Assembly: GCF_003172895.1 (NCBI RefSeq) | Contig: NZ_QGKL01000029.1 | Location: 62,001 to 126,000, forward strand | From: Leucothrix arctica | Lineage (GTDB): Bacteria > Pseudomonadota > Gammaproteobacteria > Thiotrichales > Thiotrichaceae | Length of the DNA stretch: 64,000 bases | Direction: 5' to 3' | In this document: positions 34,456-50,835 of the stretch, one piece after another | Layout of the letters: the number at the start of each line of letters is the position of its first letter | How positions within the stretch are numbered: position 1 is the stretch's first letter | Notes under the pieces: model-generated | Databases searched by the model: none | Seen by the model: only the letters and a program-made list of their open reading frames with translations | What the model was told of the DNA's origin: nothing | Translations under genes and position numbers: made by a program

Positions 34456-35428
34456 TGCTCACCTCCTGCGACGGCAAACCGTATAGCGCAAGCGCAGTTA
34501 GGCACAACACTTTATGCGTTTCACCACTGCCCGGCTGTAGAACAGCACCAGGAATTCGTAGGCCAAATTGTCGTTGTTGTTCGTGAAATGACAATACCAT
34601 CGACGACAGATGCGACAGTCGTAACTCAACACCGTTGATGTTTAAACTGTCCCAATCCAACCACAATTCCTGCCCTTCGTAATCAACAAAGGACTTGGTG
34701 TAGAGGTCACCTGTTTTTGCGTATTGTCCCCAATGAATATGCTTTGGTGAGTCACCTGCTTGGTACTCACGAACACCTGCAAAGTCATTGGAACCATTCA
34801 GTATTTCTACGCCATTCTCAGCTTCATCTTCAACATTACGGTTATCCGCTTGATTCGTTTGCTCAATCGGTTCTGGATAAACAATGCCTTCGACGTCCAT
34901 GGTGATATACGACCATGCAGTCGCAAGTCCTGTGGGATAACGAGTAAATACGTCAATGCGCGGTGGCGAAAAACGGCCTCGCTCCTTAGTACTGTGAGAG
35001 AGTTTGATGCGTGTAGATTGCTGATCTAGCAAGTTTACTTCGACTAAATCTTCATTGCGCCACCCAAAGAAAATAGCACTTTTGCGTTGTTTTAATGGAC
35101 GAGAAACTTCGAGTTCCAACACCATTTTTTCCCCTGCGAAACAAGGCTCAGCGGCAACGGCTTTGACGGTTAAGCCTGCAAGGTTGCGGTAGCAGTAAAA
35201 TATATTGATAACTAACAAACCAATCAACCAAAAACACACCACGTAAACAAGTGAATTTTGGAAGTTGATACCGAGCAAAAACAGCAAAATAATCATCACG
35301 ATCAACGCAAGGCTTACCCTACTCGGTAGGATAAAAATCTTGCGCTGCGTGAGGGTTACTTCTGCTGCTTTTGGTAAGCGTTTATTAACCCATTGGTCAA
35401 AATTAAACACCCACTCCCCCGACCACAT
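34448..35428 (-). CDS. DUF58 domain-containing membrane-associated protein
   Basis: A 326-residue protein with two hydrophobic segments (about 35-80) and a C-terminal DUF58 domain. The signature reads FAGVREYQAGDSPKHIHWGQ, followed by AKTGDLYTKSF. DUF58 proteins are von Willebrand-like and are regularly partnered with MoxR ATPases. It overlaps moxR by 26 bases and tgpA by 8 bases. Function is unknown, but it is thought to be a client or adaptor of the MoxR chaperone. Confidence 0.9.
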   Translation of the reverse strand: MWSGEWVFNFDQWVNKRLPKAAEVTLTQRKIFILPSRVSLALIVMIILLFLLGINFQNSLVYVVCFWLIGLLVINIFYCYRNLAGLTVKAVAAEPCFAGEKMVLELEVSRPLKQRKSAIFFGWRNEDLVEVNLLDQQSTRIKLSHSTKERGRFSPPRIDVFTRYPTGLATAWSYITMDVEGIVYPEPIEQTNQADNRNVEDEAENGVEILNGSNDFAGVREYQAGDSPKHIHWGQYAKTGDLYTKSFVDYEGQELWLDWDSLNINGVELRLSHLSSMVLSFHEQQRQFGLRIPGAVLQPGSGETHKVLCLTALALYGLPSQEVSND

Positions 35429-36338
35429 CTACTGAGTTCAAAATGTGTCGAGCAAGCTGGTCGCCCTGAGTTTCACGACGGCCAACTAAACGATGACCAA
35501 CCACTGCGACAAATACTGCCTGTACGTCTTCGGGTAATACGTGATCACGCCCTTGAATAAACGCCCAAGCCTGTGCGCTACGCACTAAAGCCAACGCGCC
35601 ACGAGGCGACAGACCCAACAAACACAAATCACGCTGACGTGTTTGAGCAACCAGTCGCTGGATGTAATCTAATAAGGTTTCTGACACTTTAATCTTAGGC
35701 ACAAGCGCTTGAATCGCGAGTAGATCTTCTTTGCTAATACACGACTGCATAGCAGCCAAAGAACCACGACCATGCTTGCCAAGTAATAACTGACGCTCCG
35801 CCGCTTGGTCTGGATAGCCCATCGACACACGTAATAAAAATCTATCTAACTGCGACTCAGGTAACGGAAATGTACCTGACTGGCTTTGAGGATTTTGAGT
35901 AGCTATAACGAAAAATGGCGCTGGCAAAGTATGTGTTTCACCTTCCACACTCACTTGTCGTTCTTCCATGGCTTCTAGCAAGGCACTTTGCGCACGAGGT
36001 GTCGCACGGTTGAGCTCGTCTGCTAAAAATATTTCACTAAAAATTGGCCCTGCGCGGAACTGAAACTGACTTTCTTTGGCATCAAAAACGGTTGCACCAA
36101 TGACGTCTGCGGGTAGCAAGTCACTGGTAAACTGAACACGTTTATAGTCCAACCCCATCACATTGGCCAAACCATGTGCTAGCGTGGTTTTACCCATACC
36201 GGGTAAATCTTCAAGCAATAGGTGGCCACCGGCTAAAAGTGCGGTTAGTGAGAGTCTAACTTGATTCGATTTGCCCAAAATAACGTGGTTAAGTTGGGCA
36301 GTCGCTTTTTGAATTGACGCTTGAAATTGTTGGCTCAC
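35403..36338 (-). CDS. MoxR-family AAA+ ATPase
   Basis: A 311-residue cytoplasmic AAA+ ATPase. Walker A is LEDLPGMGKTTLAHGLA, Walker B is IFLADELNRATP, and sensor 1 is FVIATQNPQSQSG. An arginine-rich lid follows with LGLSPRGALALVRSAQAWA. MoxR proteins act as chaperones, often for metal cofactor insertion or envelope functions. It is the first gene of a seven-gene minus-strand run that continues through DUF58, tgpA, modA, modB, modC and probably the DUF98 gene. Confidence 0.93.
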   Translation of the reverse strand: MSQQFQASIQKATAQLNHVILGKSNQVRLSLTALLAGGHLLLEDLPGMGKTTLAHGLANVMGLDYKRVQFTSDLLPADVIGATVFDAKESQFQFRAGPIFSEIFLADELNRATPRAQSALLEAMEERQVSVEGETHTLPAPFFVIATQNPQSQSGTFPLPESQLDRFLLRVSMGYPDQAAERQLLLGKHGRGSLAAMQSCISKEDLLAIQALVPKIKVSETLLDYIQRLVAQTRQRDLCLLGLSPRGALALVRSAQAWAFIQGRDHVLPEDVQAVFVAVVGHRLVGRRETQGDQLARHILNSVDVVGGVGV

Positions 36339-37014
36339 AGTGTGTTCTCAGGGGTTGTGTTATTTTTATATAGTCACAACTCTAGAACACACTTTAAGCA
36401 ATTTCAATTCGACCTGCGGAGCGGTCTATTTCGGCACTTGTCGCTCCCTCGCAAAAGAGAGGACATCCTTGTCCGTTACTCCCTGACCATCCGTTGCGTC
36501 AGTGGTGAAGAGAATAGCCAGTCCTGAACTTATAGCTCGCGCCAAAGTTATTAAAGGTTGGTAACGGCAGATAAAGCGTAAGGTATTCATATCTACCCCC
36601 AATAGATGAAAGGAAGTAGTCCGACACACTAGGAATTTTTAGTATGACCCTGAAAATCTAACATATGAATAACAGGGACTTAAGAGAGTATGCATTGTGT
36701 AGATAGTTACCGAGCTCTATTCATACATAATATGAGTGAAGATGAGCAAGACTCTATGGTATTTGCAACGGCTAATAGTTTATAAGGTTAAAATTAGCTC
36801 ATTGACTAGAAAACTTGCCAACTAAAAATTCTTCACACGGTTACCTCGAAACATTTATATGAACTTGGTATTCCCCTGTACAGTTCTGCTAGACTACTAA
36901 CATTCGTCATATGTAACAGTATTACTAAATTTTTTTTTGACTATGTTACGCAGATCTTAAATCGTAGCTAATATTTGTAAAAAAAATTCATTGACTCCAC
37001 CTGAGTAATTTAAA
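36339..37014. other. 676-base gap upstream of the AT-rich cassette
   Basis: I find no convincing gene. The left part (to about 36600) has host-like composition, and a 67-codon minus frame at 36426-36629 has no recognisable features. From about 36640 the sequence turns strongly AT-rich and continues so into the next two genes, which suggests that the left boundary of an acquired segment lies here. A TTGACT at 36938 after a T run could be a -35 box for the cassette, but no good -10 pairs with it. Confidence 0.5.
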
Positions 37015-38145
37015 ATGATCATTCAAGAAATATACTACTTCGATGCACGAAGAAAAATTGAAATAAAGGAAATGAAATTTGACAAGTTTAATGCATTAGT
37101 TGGTGTATCAGGTGCTGGAAAAACGACAATAATTAGAGCTATTGATGCAATTTTAAATATTGTTTCTGGGAATTCCGAGCCTGCAGATAATTGGAAGATT
37201 TCCTTTCTGGATGATGATAATAATGAAATAGTTTGGGAAGGTATTTATTCAAAAAATATTGAATTTGACGACAAAGGTGATGATATTTCTGAACTTACTG
37301 CAGAGTCATTGTTTAAAAACGGTGAAGAAATAATTAATCGGCGCAAGAGTAGTACAATTTACAATGGAGAAAAACTACCGGTTATTGATAAATACAAAAG
37401 CTTAATGTATGTACTTAGAGATGACCCTTTAATAGCTCCTATCTATAAATCGCTTAAGTCAATAATAATAATCTTGAATAATTCTACTGGACATTCTCAT
37501 ACTGGTGCAACAGCAATATTTAATCCAAAGTCAATTGAAAACACCAAAAAAAGAATAAATAGCAATAAAGAAGACATCCTGAAAATATTAAATGAAGAAA
37601 AAGCGAACTGTAGAAAAAGAATTTTTTACATTCATAAATACAGATCAGATATGTTTGATGAATTTCTTTTTACTTACACAAACATTTTCCCTGATGTAGT
37701 AAATATAATTCCTGAAATAAAAAGATCAAGATCAAATAAAAGCCCTAGAGATACTTCAGCTCTATACATTAAACTTAAAATGAAGTCTGGAGCAATAGTC
37801 GAACAGAGCGAGATATCTTCGGGTATGTTTAAAACTATGATGATTTTATCAGAGCTTATGTTTGGAAATAAAAAATCCCCAATAATTATTGATGAAATTG
37901 AAAACAGTTTAGGTATTAACTGTTTATCTGAGATTGCTGCAGAGCTGAAATCCTCTGAAAATCAGATAATAATCACGACTCATCATCCGCAAGTTATCGA
38001 AGGTACAGACCCTAAGTTTTATAGAATAATTAAACGCGACGGGGGGGTTATTACTTCAGATCCTGCTGAGGAAATAAAAGGCTCATCAAGTCACCATGAT
38101 AGATTTATTCAGCTAATAAATAGCTCCCAATACAAAGGTTTTTGA
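37015..38145 (+). CDS. Small SMC/OLD-like AAA ATPase, putative defence component
   Basis: A 376-residue cytoplasmic ATPase of the AAA15/AAA21 (OLD/RecF-like) kind. Walker A is GVSGAGKTT at 30-38, the ABC-like signature is EISSGMFKT (about 266-273), Walker B is IIIDEIEN at 290-297, and a switch histidine occurs in TTHHPQVIEG (about 321-330). The middle (about 60-260) is lysine/isoleucine-rich and unrecognised. It has no TOPRIM domain of its own; the next gene supplies one. Base composition is far more AT-rich than on either side, a sign of transfer. No good ribosome site precedes the ATG. The family is clear; the defence role is inferred from the pairing. Confidence 0.78.
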   Translation: MIIQEIYYFDARRKIEIKEMKFDKFNALVGVSGAGKTTIIRAIDAILNIVSGNSEPADNWKISFLDDDNNEIVWEGIYSKNIEFDDKGDDISELTAESLFKNGEEIINRRKSSTIYNGEKLPVIDKYKSLMYVLRDDPLIAPIYKSLKSIIIILNNSTGHSHTGATAIFNPKSIENTKKRINSNKEDILKILNEEKANCRKRIFYIHKYRSDMFDEFLFTYTNIFPDVVNIIPEIKRSRSNKSPRDTSALYIKLKMKSGAIVEQSEISSGMFKTMMILSELMFGNKKSPIIIDEIENSLGINCLSEIAAELKSSENQIIITTHHPQVIEGTDPKFYRIIKRDGGVITSDPAEEIKGSSSHHDRFIQLINSSQYKGF

Positions 38146-38147
38146 TT

Positions 38148-38849
38148 GTGAAATCATACTTTTTATTTGAAGGCTCAAGCTCAGAACCTCAAGTATATCC
38201 ATACTGGCTTTCGGTTCTTTTACCCAATATTGATCAATACACCTCTGATACATATGAAAATTTCAAGAATTGTGACTCAGGATTTTTCTTCATTTCAGGA
38301 GAGGGATATCCACAAGTTTTACAACGAATTGAAAACTCAGTTAAAGATATTCAAGATATTGGCGACATTGATTATTTTTTTGTAGTAATTGATTGTGATG
38401 AATCAAATACTACTACTAGGGAGAATGAAATATTATCAACGATAAGTGATTATTTATTACCAGATAGGACACGTGTTATTCCAATAGTCCAAAATAGATG
38501 TTTTGAATCTATGCTTCTGGGTAATCAAAGGATAATACCTAGGCAAAGCACCCAACCTCCTCTTTCTCATTATATTAATTACTACGATACCAGCTCACAC
38601 GACCCTGAGTTAATGGGAAATTTTAATGATAGTTTCACTCATGCTCAATTTCATGCAGTCTATTTAAAAAAAGCAACAGTTGCTAAAAGAATTAGATACG
38701 CAAAGAATAATTGTGTAGGTGTCATGAATGAGCCCTACCTAAACTCTTTGATTTTAAGGTTTAAAGAACATGGTCATATAGACTCATTTGGTAGGTTTAT
38801 TTCTGCAGTAAACTCTATGAGAGAAAAGTTAGACTTACCTCACATCTAA
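38148..38849 (+). CDS. TOPRIM/RloB-like putative nuclease partner of the ATPase
   Basis: A 233-residue protein that I do not recognise by name. Three spaced blocks match the TOPRIM-like/RloB pattern: LFEGSSSEP (E8, E13), then VVIDCDESN (D82, D84), then NRCFESMLLGN (E120). These would be the metal-binding glutamate and DxD residues of a nuclease. The GTG at 38148 lies 2 bases after the ATPase stop with AAGG at 9 bases; TTG at 38142 is possible. It shares the AT-rich composition of its partner. Split ATPase plus TOPRIM pairs occur in anti-phage systems such as PARIS and AbiL-like modules; assignment to any of them is not established. Confidence 0.65.
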   Translation: MKSYFLFEGSSSEPQVYPYWLSVLLPNIDQYTSDTYENFKNCDSGFFFISGEGYPQVLQRIENSVKDIQDIGDIDYFFVVIDCDESNTTTRENEILSTISDYLLPDRTRVIPIVQNRCFESMLLGNQRIIPRQSTQPPLSHYINYYDTSSHDPELMGNFNDSFTHAQFHAVYLKKATVAKRIRYAKNNCVGVMNEPYLNSLILRFKEHGHIDSFGRFISAVNSMREKLDLPHI

Positions 38850-38941
38850 CTTTTTCTTCGTACCCCAAATACTAGCAATCACCGCTAAAAATAGGCACAC
38901 TGCATCCGCCCATTTTCCTATTCTCTGGCGGATTCTTTACC

Positions 38942-39526
38942 ATGGCTAAACTCTACTTTTACTACTCCACAATGAATGCTGGAAAGTCCACCACCCTCCT
39001 TCAGTCGAGTTTTAACTACCGTGAGCGCGGCATGGACACGCTGTTACTGACCGCCGCATTTGATGATCGTTTTGGTAAAGGCAAAGTCACCTCTCGCATC
39101 GGTTTATCGCAAGAAGCGGAGTTATTTCATGCTGAAGATAACTTGTTTGAAGTGGTTACCGACTACCATTTCACCACGCCTATTAATTGTGTATTGGTTG
39201 ATGAGGCGCAGTTTTTGACTCAAGAGCAGGTTTGGCAGTTGAGTGACGTCTGTGACTCGTTGAATATTCCGGTGCTGTGTTACGGCATTCGTACTGACTT
39301 TCAGGGGCAGTTATTTACGGGTAGCCAGTGGTTACTTGCGTGGGCAGATGTGCTGGAAGAGTTGAAGACGATTTGTCACTGTGGCAGCAAGGCCAATATG
39401 GTGGTGCGTGTCGATGAACATGGTGAAGCCGTGAAAGATGGTACTCAGGTTGAGATTGGCGGGAATGATCGCTATGTATCGCTGTGTCGCAGGCACTTTA
39501 AAGACGCTTATTTAAAAACCGCTTAA
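38942..39526 (+). CDS. tdk: Thymidine kinase (type II)
   Basis: A 194-residue cytosolic enzyme that phosphorylates thymidine to dTMP for salvage. The P-loop is [13 protein letters not shown] near the N-terminus, the acidic block is [10 protein letters not shown], and the lasso-zinc region carries CHCG and a C-terminal [18 protein letters not shown] is the typical end. Base composition returns to the host type at this gene, marking the right edge of the AT-rich cassette. Confidence 0.95.
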
Positions 39527-48762: not shown

Positions 48763-50835
48763 ATGGATTCGATTTTTATTAGTTATAGCCACCAAGATGA
48801 AAAATGGAAAGACCGTATCCAGAGCCACCTAACTGTGCTTGAAAAAAACGACAAGCTCACTATTTGGGATGATAGACAAATCGCACTCGGTGGTGACTGG
48901 CTAAACAATATTGAACAGTCGCTCGAAAAAGCTACGATTGCACTGTTGTTGGTAAGTCGCCACTTCTTAAACTCTGACTTTATCCGCAACAAAGAAATCC
49001 CTGAGTTATTACAACGTAGCGAGCAAGATGGCTTAAAAGTAATACCTGTAATGCTGACACCCTGTAGCTGGCAACAAGTTACTTGGCTATCAAAAATTCA
49101 GGGATACCCAAAAGACAATAAGCCGCTATCAGGTTTGACGGAACACCAGATTGATGAAGCACTGGCAGCACTCGGTAATCGTCTAGTCGAGACTCAACCA
49201 TCAACTCCCTCAAGCACAGCAGCAGCAGTGTATACACCAATCACGCCATCACATAACGTTTCTAGTACCTCTAATATAAATGCGAATGACAACGCTCAAC
49301 CCATTGTTGCTAACGACAGTGCCAACATCACCGTCAACAATAACCAAGGGATTTCCCTAGAAGAGTATGAAGCAGGGTTACTACGACAAGAAAAACGCTT
49401 GCGTGAAGAGTTTCGTAACAACACGGGAAGCCCGACAGAACTAAAACGTCTAAAAGCTCAATTAGATGCGGTCTCTGACAACCTCCTCAACCTACAAAGT
49501 AGCTATGAGGAATCTCAGAAACTCCTTCAAGAAGCTGATCAAGCACTGGAAATACTCAAAAACGAACTACCTGTCGCGCAAGTAAAAAAAGCACAAGCTC
49601 TATTGGCAAAGAATGATACAGGAGCAGCCAAAGAAGCATTTAATGATATCGTCGAAAAAGGCAGCCCCTCAATGGCATTGGCAGCCTATGAAAGCGGTAG
49701 ACTGGAAGAAAATGACATCAACTACGATAATGCAATGAAGCAATATAGCATCGCGGTTACGCTTGAGGATAGCAATCCAGACTATCTTTCAGCTGCGGGA
49801 ACGATGGCACGCACACTAGGTGACTACTCCACATCACGAAAATGGCTTGAGATTCTACTGAAATTACGAGAGCAAGCTGGCGGTAAAACAATAGATATTG
49901 CATATGCTCAACATGATTTAGCTTGGGTTTATGAAGATATGGGCGAATATAAAAAAGCAGAGACTTTATATAAGCGCTCAATCTTTATAAAAGAGAGCTC
50001 GATGGGAAAGAATCACCCGGAAGTGGCTACTACTTTGAATAACCTAGCTGGGTTATATCAGACACAAGGCGAGTACCTAAAAGCAGAACCAACCTTTCAA
50101 CGCGCACTTGATATCACAGAAAAGTCGATTGGAAAAGAAAACACAGACTTCGCAAGAACTTTAAATAACCTTGCTTTGCTTCACAAAGATCAAGGTTATT
50201 ATGAGAAAGCGCAACCACTCTTTCAACACAGCCTCAAAGTCTTTGAAAAGTCATTTGGTAAGGAACACCCAGATATCGCAGTAGCTTTAAGTAATCTCGC
50301 TCAGTTATATTGTGAGCAAGATAAGTATGAAAAAGCAGAGTCCCTCTTTAAGCGCTCTCTAAAGATAAGTGAGAAGTATTTCAACAAAGATCATCTGGAG
50401 ATAACAAAAACCCTAAATGGTCTTGCTGGCTTATATCATAATCAAGGCAAGTACATTAAGGCAGAGTCACTATTTCAACGCTCCCTTAAAATCTATGAGA
50501 GCTCTCTTGGTAAAGAGCACCACTATGTCACAGTCACTCTAAACAATCTTGCTTGGCTGTATCAAAACCAAGGCAAATATGAAAAATCGGAACAGCTCTT
50601 TCAACGCTGCCTTCAGACCAAGGAAAAGTCTCTAGGAAAAGAACACCCTTCTCTCGCTGTGACTTTAAACAACTTAGCCTTACTTTATGATAAACAGGGC
50701 AAGCTGGAGCTATCACTTGTCTACATTAAACGTGCAATCACTATTTTGGGGAAAAAGCTTCCTGTCACACACCCTCATTTGATGCACAGCAATCAAACCC
50801 TTAAGTTTCTCCAAGCCAAACTAGCCATCAAATAA
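48763..50835 (+). CDS. TIR-domain protein with kinesin-light-chain-type TPR repeats
   Basis: A 690-residue soluble protein. Residues 1-143 form a TIR domain starting MDSIFISYSHQDEKW, with SRHFLNSDFIRNKEIPELL at 65-83; E78 sits where NAD-cleaving TIR domains have their catalytic glutamate. A Ser/Thr/Asn-rich linker follows (145-195), then a coiled coil (about 200-275) and a helical region with irregular TPRs (about 275-395). Six regular 42-residue TPRs run from 396 to 647, with a degenerate seventh to the end. Bacterial TIR-TPR proteins may act as NAD-depleting defence or signalling proteins; that role here is inferred. It is monocistronic, with a strong terminator behind it. Confidence 0.85.
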   Translation: MDSIFISYSHQDEKWKDRIQSHLTVLEKNDKLTIWDDRQIALGGDWLNNIEQSLEKATIALLLVSRHFLNSDFIRNKEIPELLQRSEQDGLKVIPVMLTPCSWQQVTWLSKIQGYPKDNKPLSGLTEHQIDEALAALGNRLVETQPSTPSSTAAAVYTPITPSHNVSSTSNINANDNAQPIVANDSANITVNNNQGISLEEYEAGLLRQEKRLREEFRNNTGSPTELKRLKAQLDAVSDNLLNLQSSYEESQKLLQEADQALEILKNELPVAQVKKAQALLAKNDTGAAKEAFNDIVEKGSPSMALAAYESGRLEENDINYDNAMKQYSIAVTLEDSNPDYLSAAGTMARTLGDYSTSRKWLEILLKLREQAGGKTIDIAYAQHDLAWVYEDMGEYKKAETLYKRSIFIKESSMGKNHPEVATTLNNLAGLYQTQGEYLKAEPTFQRALDITEKSIGKENTDFARTLNNLALLHKDQGYYEKAQPLFQHSLKVFEKSFGKEHPDIAVALSNLAQLYCEQDKYEKAESLFKRSLKISEKYFNKDHLEITKTLNGLAGLYHNQGKYIKAESLFQRSLKIYESSLGKEHHYVTVTLNNLAWLYQNQGKYEKSEQLFQRCLQTKEKSLGKEHPSLAVTLNNLALLYDKQGKLELSLVYIKRAITILGKKLPVTHPHLMHSNQTLKFLQAKLAIK
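49948..50703 (+). repeat. Six 126-base tandem coding repeats (TPR)
   Basis: Each 42-codon unit encodes a variant of YxKAExLFxRSL followed by a GKEHPxxAxTLNNLAxLY block. The units are in exact register with no insertions between residues 396 and 647. The DNA copies have diverged, so the array is old rather than freshly amplified. Confidence 0.85.

What the first reader, a model, noticed from the sequence alone, without database searches (positions are those of the whole stretch)
36640..38849. AT-rich two-gene ATPase plus TOPRIM-like cassette: candidate undescribed anti-phage system
Two genes separated by 2 bases stand alone in a block far richer in A+T than tdk or moxR on either side (one 60-base line counted by hand is about 28% G+C, against about 53% for a line in tdk). 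The first is a compact OLD/SMC-like ATPase without a nuclease domain. The second has the E...ExxxE, DxD and CFE-x-LL blocks of TOPRIM/RloB-like nucleases. ATPase plus TOPRIM pairs are a known defence design (PARIS, AbiL, split OLD types), but the sizes and sequences here do not clearly match one I know.
Basis: partly seen in the sequence, partly recalled or inferred. Interest (0 to 1): 0.8.

Follow-up and report, generated by a model that had tools for sequence, protein, structure and literature searches.

The report
Distinct ATPase-TOPRIM candidate phage-defence pair
Two adjacent, foreign-looking genes encode an ATP-powered sensor-like protein and a predicted nucleic-acid-cutting partner; the same pair recurs, always together, across many bacterial phyla and in a known anti-virus hotspot of phage genomes, so it is probably a phage-defence system of a known general design but of a distinct family that I did not find described.

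Summary
Two genes, 37015-38145 (376 aa) and 38148-38849 (233 aa, GTG start), lie 2 bases apart in a 31.8% G+C block, against 45.3±1.8% elsewhere in the window. The first has every ABC/OLD-type ATPase motif and folds like Rad50, PtuA and AriA. The second carries the EGxxTE, DxD/E and CxExW blocks of RloB/DUF4276 TOPRIM proteins; profile comparison links it to both, with clean controls, but no fold search matched it significantly.

It is one member of a distinct family. I found about 90 loci in many bacterial phyla and an archaeon. The ATPase sits directly upstream wherever the contig allows, the two proteins co-diverge (r=0.86), and the pair is lower in G+C than its flanks in 61 of 61 loci. The ATPases form a clade apart from those of RloAB/AbiL and DUF4276 (HEC-01) pairs. 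E. coli P2-like prophages carry it between gpA and gpQ, the published defence hotspot. A congener carries HEC-01 immediately before tdk, the same spot.

Best reading: an AbiL/PARIS-style abortive defence. A new variant of a known kind; function untested.

The parts
37015..38145 (+). Gene A: ABC/OLD-type ATPase, 376 aa. Walker A G30-VSGAGKT37, W74, E97, signature S268-SGM271, Walker B IIIDE294, family D-loop block DEIENSLGINC, H-loop HH323-324, R341
   Evidence: AAA_21 5.1e-15; AlphaFold2 pLDDT 89.2; Foldseek to Rad50, retron PtuA, Septu PtuA, AriA at E 1e-14 to 1e-11; G30, S32, G35, K36, E97, S268, G270, M271, D293, E294, E296, G300, Q317, T321, H323, H324, R341 invariant in 70 homologues
38148..38849 (+). 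Gene B: predicted TOPRIM nuclease of the RloB/DUF4276 kind, 233 aa, GTG start. E8-G9, E13; D82-x-D84; I113-x-Q115...C118-F-E120...G125-N126; P153-E154; Y184-x-K186; R204
   Evidence: hhalign of 75 homologues: DUF4276 96.5%, E 9e-10, nearly full length; RloB 95.9%, E 6e-9; reversed and column-shuffled controls null; AlphaFold2 pLDDT 96.7 with beta-alpha order of a TOPRIM core
36340..37014 (.). A+T-rich intergenic stretch (37.8% G+C) between the divergent moxR and gene A; presumably holds the operon promoter; no Rfam family and no promoter-like or repeat signal above expectation
38850..38941 (.). Gap of 92 bases between gene B and tdk. In congener G004 an unrelated ATPase-TOPRIM pair (HEC-01) ends 33 bases before tdk

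Best explanation
The two genes are one mobile two-gene anti-phage module. Gene A is an ABC/OLD-type ATPase that assembles with and restrains gene B, and probably senses the infection. Gene B is a metal-dependent TOPRIM nuclease of the RloB/DUF4276 kind which, when released or switched on by A, cuts a nucleic acid of the host cell (a tRNA, as in PARIS, is my first guess; DNA is the alternative), so that the infected cell stops growing and the phage is not amplified. Shown by sequence: gene order and coupling, intact ATPase and TOPRIM-type residues, broad patchy distribution, foreign base composition, presence in the P2 defence hotspot. Inferred: physical complex, sensing by A, nuclease activity of B, target, abortive outcome.
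For: Obligate pair: of the relatives found, gene A lies directly upstream on the same strand in all but two, both at contig ends; intergenic distance -4 to +18 except one miscount on a plasmid with a duplicated pair, most often the 4-base ATGA overlap. Distance matrices of A and B correlate at r=0.86, 0 of 2000 permutations as high. Catalytic-type residues invariant in both. Patchy: own genome only in its genus, 2 of 369 Gammaproteobacteria, yet also in Cyanobacteriota, Bacteroidota, Planctomycetota, Spirochaetota, Acidobacteriota, Thermodesulfobacteriota, Nitrospirota, Bacillota and a Thermoplasmatota archaeon and on plasmids beside integrases, transposases or a restriction-modification system. 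Lower G+C than flanks in 61 of 61 loci, mean -8.9 points. In P2-like prophages it lies between gpA and portal gpQ, the hotspot where old, tin and other verified defence systems reside (PMC9122126). At tdk a congener has HEC-01, another ATPase-TOPRIM pair. A folds like the ATPases of PARIS, Septu and retrons. In PARIS, AriA restrains AriB, which cleaves tRNA when released (PMC12409363).
Against: No experiment on this family. Model B had no Foldseek match below 1e-3 in PDB or BFVD, so TOPRIM rests on profiles, motifs and topology. Immediate neighbours of the chromosomal copies are mostly ordinary genes, with only a few defence genes, so the defence-island argument is weak outside the P2 hotspot. 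The complex could not be modelled here. ABC-TOPRIM pairs can also serve repair (RecF with RecR, own knowledge).
Confidence: 0.6

Rival explanations
1. The pair is simply AbiL (RloA/RloB) or HEC-01 in diverged form, and so already described.
For: B profiles link to RloB and DUF4276; 72 of 75 B proteins hit PADLOC AbiLii weakly, 43 hit an HEC-01B model weakly, all 70 A proteins hit AbiLi and HEC-01A models. Same gene order, same four motif blocks including the C-terminal YxK.
Against: The window proteins score 65 bits (A, AbiLi) and 22 bits (B, AbiLii), with little of the B profile covered, while true members score far higher: HEC-01 in G004 369 and 216 bits, RloB of this genome 98 bits to AbiLii. 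The A proteins form a clade supported 100/99, separate from 11 RloA and 13 DUF4276-linked ATPases; signatures DExENSLGxNC (68 of 70) and QNxCxETWxxG (74 of 75) occur in none of those RloA, RloB or DUF4276-set proteins.
Confidence: 0.2
2. A toxin-antitoxin or plasmid-stabilising module: B is a toxin and A its neutraliser, serving maintenance of the mobile element rather than phage defence.
For: Tight coupling, plasmid and prophage carriage; F. nucleatum AbiLii is toxic in E. coli (PMC3985639).
Against: AbiLi of F. nucleatum did not neutralise AbiLii; deleting ariA or ariB of PARIS was non-toxic. Locus L070 has an internal deletion in A with B intact, which an addiction toxin should not tolerate.
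Confidence: 0.15
3. A housekeeping DNA-repair or nucleoprotein pair like RecF with RecR, or a cell-cycle role like archaeal OLD-family Cran1.
For: A's best fold matches include Rad50 and SMC heads; a non-defensive OLD-family role is reported in archaea (PMC12796447, abstract).
Against: Extreme patchiness, foreign composition everywhere, prophage and plasmid carriage; invariant acidic residues suggest catalysis.
Confidence: 0.07

Closest known systems
AbiL (AbiLi/AbiLii) and RloA/RloB pairs
   Same: ABC/AAA_21 ATPase followed directly by a TOPRIM protein with EGxKTE, DxD, CFExWLL and YxK blocks
   Different: Separate ATPase clade, different signature blocks, alignment to RloB only over residues 3-149, no full-length AbiL score
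HEC-01 (ATPase plus DUF4276)
   Same: Two-gene layout; B aligns to DUF4276 over nearly its whole length; an HEC-01 pair occupies the same tdk-proximal position in a congener
   Different: Window B below Pfam DUF4276 cut-off (14.7 against 30.2 bits), no HEC-01B hit for window B; ATPases in a different clade
PARIS (AriA/AriB)
   Same: ABC ATPase plus separate TOPRIM gene; A's fold resembles AriA
   Different: B shows no similarity to DUF4435/AriB: null profile comparison with the one DUF4435 protein tried, no Pfam DUF4435 hit
Gabija GajA and OLD nucleases
   Same: ATPase with TOPRIM logic
   Different: Two separate proteins, no helicase partner; B only marginally touches the OLD-like TOPRIM model in 2 of 75 members

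Membership tests
TOPRIM superfamily (RloB/DUF4276 kind) | E after strand 1 and DxD after strand 3 of a beta-alpha core | tested here: met
   E8, D82 invariant, position 84 D/E in 75 of 75; strand and helix order in the model fits
TOPRIM superfamily (RloB/DUF4276 kind) | Significant structural match to a TOPRIM structure | tested here: not met
   No match below 1e-3 in PDB or BFVD; an RloB-like viral protein at rank 14, E 0.11, TM 0.42
TOPRIM superfamily (RloB/DUF4276 kind) | Profile similarity to members | tested here: met
   96.5% to DUF4276 and 95.9% to RloB alignments, controls at most 0.4%
AbiL | ATPase AbiLi followed by TOPRIM AbiLii | tested here: met
   layout
AbiL | Full-length scores to AbiLi and AbiLii (or RloB) models | tested here: not met
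   AbiLii 22 bits, RloB 13.0 against cut-off 31.5; AbiLi 64.7 bits over about half of the profile
AbiL | ATPase nested among RloA-type ATPases | tested here: not met
   separate clade 100/99; only gammaproteobacterial RloA sampled
HEC-01 | DUF4276 protein above cut-off and HEC-01 model scores | tested here: not met
   14.7 against 30.2 bits; no HEC-01B hit; positive control in G004 216 bits
PARIS | DUF4435 (AriB) partner | tested here: not met
Anti-phage defence systems in general | Measured protection against phage | not testable with these tools
   no experiment possible
Anti-phage defence systems in general | Carriage in a verified defence hotspot | tested here: met
   between gpA and gpQ of P2-like prophages (PMC9122126)

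The most novel reading that the evidence does not exclude
A separate, so far unnamed anti-phage system, found across bacteria and at least one archaeon and carried by P2-like prophages, whose TOPRIM effector belongs to neither the AbiLii/RloB, DUF4276 nor AriB families and may have its own trigger and its own nucleic-acid target.
Probability: 0.4. Interest if true: 0.65.

Novelty: new variant of a known kind. Interest (0 to 1): 0.5.

Why it matters
Split ATPase-TOPRIM modules are widespread, but what the RloB/DUF4276-type TOPRIM effectors cut is unknown to me; PARIS AriB is the worked example, with tRNA. This family is sharply defined by two signatures and has an E. coli prophage copy, so its trigger and target can be tested directly in laboratory E. 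coli. It also adds a system that PADLOC-DB 2023 models would miss, and suggests that the flank of tdk may be a site where such modules are exchanged.

Tried and rejected
Single-protein scan of genome contigs found nothing; the alignment-based scan did. Solved-structure sequence searches gave no relative of B, RloB or DUF4276. Fold search of B in PDB and BFVD was not significant. A clean empty site could not be shown: moxR and tdk are not adjacent in congeners G003 and G004, and tdk was not found in the others examined. Repeats at the block borders: none convincing. RNA families: none. Promoter-like and terminator-like sites were no more frequent than in shuffles. The 'phage' record MT839527 is an unverified metagenomic scaffold whose other ORFs do not look viral, so not used as phage evidence. 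My first extraction of RloB/DUF4276 proteins ignored strand and was redone. Neighbour families give only weak defence enrichment.

Full report
WHAT IS THERE. Two + strand ORFs, 37015-38145 and 38148-38849, are separated by two bases and lie between a divergent moxR (35403-36338, AAA_3 2.7e-61) and tdk (38942-39526, TK 6.7e-54). The pair is 31.8% G+C; equal-size stretches elsewhere in the window average 45.3% (sd 1.8, minimum 40.4%).

GENE A. Pfam AAA_21 at 5.1e-15. AlphaFold2 with 70 family members gives pLDDT 89.2, and Foldseek matches Rad50, retron and Septu PtuA, AriA and SMC heads at E 1e-14 to 1e-11. Walker A, the S-S-G-M signature, Walker B and the H-loop are intact and invariant or nearly so across the family. 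The stretch following the Walker B aspartate-glutamate reads DEFENSLGxNC in nearly all members (68 of 70 fit the pattern), in none of 11 RloA and none of 13 DUF4276-linked ATPases.

GENE B. No database family passes its cut-off for the window protein (Pfam DUF4276 14.7 bits and RloB 13.0 bits; NCBIfam none). PADLOC AbiLii is hit at 4e-5 over a small part of the profile. Across 75 homologues, however, 65 touch DUF4276 (best 5e-7) and 59 touch RloB (best 2.8e-6). Profile-profile comparison with alignments I built from RloB and DUF4276 proteins gives 95.9% (E 5.8e-9, residues 3-150) and 96.5% (E 9.2e-10, residues 1-224); reversed, column-shuffled and ATPase controls give at most 0.4%. The aligned blocks are EGxxTE, DxD, CxExW and a later YxK, the last seen in the RloB alignment too. 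AlphaFold2 pLDDT is 96.7 and the order beta-alpha-beta-alpha-beta-alpha-beta with the acidic residues after strands 1 and 3 is that of a TOPRIM core (topology from general knowledge). Against this, Foldseek found no match below 1e-3 in PDB or BFVD; an RloB-like viral protein was rank 14 with E 0.11 and TM 0.42. I therefore call B a predicted TOPRIM nuclease of the RloB/DUF4276 kind, supported by sequence, not by fold search.

A FAMILY OF OBLIGATE PAIRS. Seven plasmids, 80 genome contigs, four viral contigs and another gammaproteobacterial genome carry relatives. In the scanned loci A lies directly upstream of B, except two cases where B is at a contig end; the distance is most often a 4-base overlap and within -4 to +18, apart from one miscount on a plasmid with a duplicated pair. 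A and B distances correlate at r=0.86 (0 of 2000 permutations). Hosts span Cyanobacteriota, Bacteroidota, Pseudomonadota, Planctomycetota, Spirochaetota, Acidobacteriota, Thermodesulfobacteriota, Nitrospirota, Bacillota and a Thermoplasmatota archaeon (many are MAG assignments). The pair is lower in G+C than its flanks in 61 of 61 loci (mean -8.9 points). It is rare: 2 of 369 Gammaproteobacteria, one (a contig-edge fragment) besides the own genome among 57 relatives. The closest relative is in Catenovulum agarivorans (45-46% identity).

A SEPARATE CLADE. In a tree of 94 ATPases the 70 family members are one clade (100/99) apart from 11 RloA and 13 DUF4276-linked ATPases. Every RloB and DUF4276 gene I extracted also followed an ATPase-like ORF, so the kind is shared while the family is distinct. 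The comparison sets are gammaproteobacterial only, and some long branches make deep placement unsure.

DEFENCE EVIDENCE. Four IMG/VR contigs and E. coli strain 23CRST009 carry the pair in P2-like prophages between the replication gene gpA and the portal gene gpQ (ORFs read for two of the contigs and the strain). Rousset et al. 2022 (PMC9122126) define exactly this interval as a defence hotspot, holding old and tin in P2 and further systems with verified activity. On plasmids the pair lies next to integrases, transposases or a restriction-modification system. At the chromosomal site of the window, congener G004 carries a different ATPase-TOPRIM pair immediately before tdk, which is a clear HEC-01 (369 and 216 bits). 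Two cases only, so a tdk hotspot is a suggestion. General neighbours of chromosomal copies are mostly ordinary.

MECHANISM. By analogy to PARIS, where AriA holds AriB inactive until a phage trigger binds and free AriB then cuts tRNA (PMC12409363), and to AbiL, whose TOPRIM protein AbiLii is described as the toxic effector of abortive infection (PMC10440598; F. nucleatum AbiLii toxic in E. coli, PMC3985639), I propose that A is the ATP-dependent sensor and keeper and B the effector nuclease. Likelihoods, my judgement: defence function 0.75; B a nuclease 0.8; A restrains B 0.6; tRNA as target 0.35.

NOVELTY. The general design is known. This particular family has no full-length model in the libraries searched and no paper found under the terms tried, but the library lacks preprints and supplements. 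I rate it a new variant of a known kind.

Noticed in passing
window 48763-50835 +: A 690-aa protein with an N-terminal TIR domain (TIR_2 3.3e-15; PADLOC ThsB 1.3e-28) followed by many tetratricopeptide repeats: another possible defence or signalling gene 10 kb from the pair.
   Followed up: partly
L018:2468-4194 (G004, same genus, immediately upstream of tdk): A clear HEC-01 ATPase plus DUF4276 pair sits in the same tdk-proximal position as the window's unrelated ATPase-TOPRIM pair, hinting at an exchange site.
   Followed up: partly
L123 (G000:C38:138026-141586): The window's own genome holds a separate RloA/RloB (AbiL-like) pair on another contig; another AAA_21 ATPase lies about 28 kb away.
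   Followed up: no
L016 (Proteus terrae 10-kb plasmid NZ_CP152081): The plasmid carries the pair twice, one copy with gene A split into two reading frames.
   Followed up: no
L070:6549-7687: A decayed copy: gene A has lost its middle (profile positions 129-359) while B is intact, so B without functional A may be tolerated.
   Followed up: no
L015 (Methylovorus plasmid pMsip02): The pair follows an integrase on a small plasmid that also encodes a zonular-occludens-toxin-domain protein, as filamentous phages do.
   Followed up: no
L030 (MT839527.1): A record named 'Bacteriophage sp.' holds the pair, but its other ORFs look like those of a bacterial chromosome; probably not a phage.
   Followed up: partly
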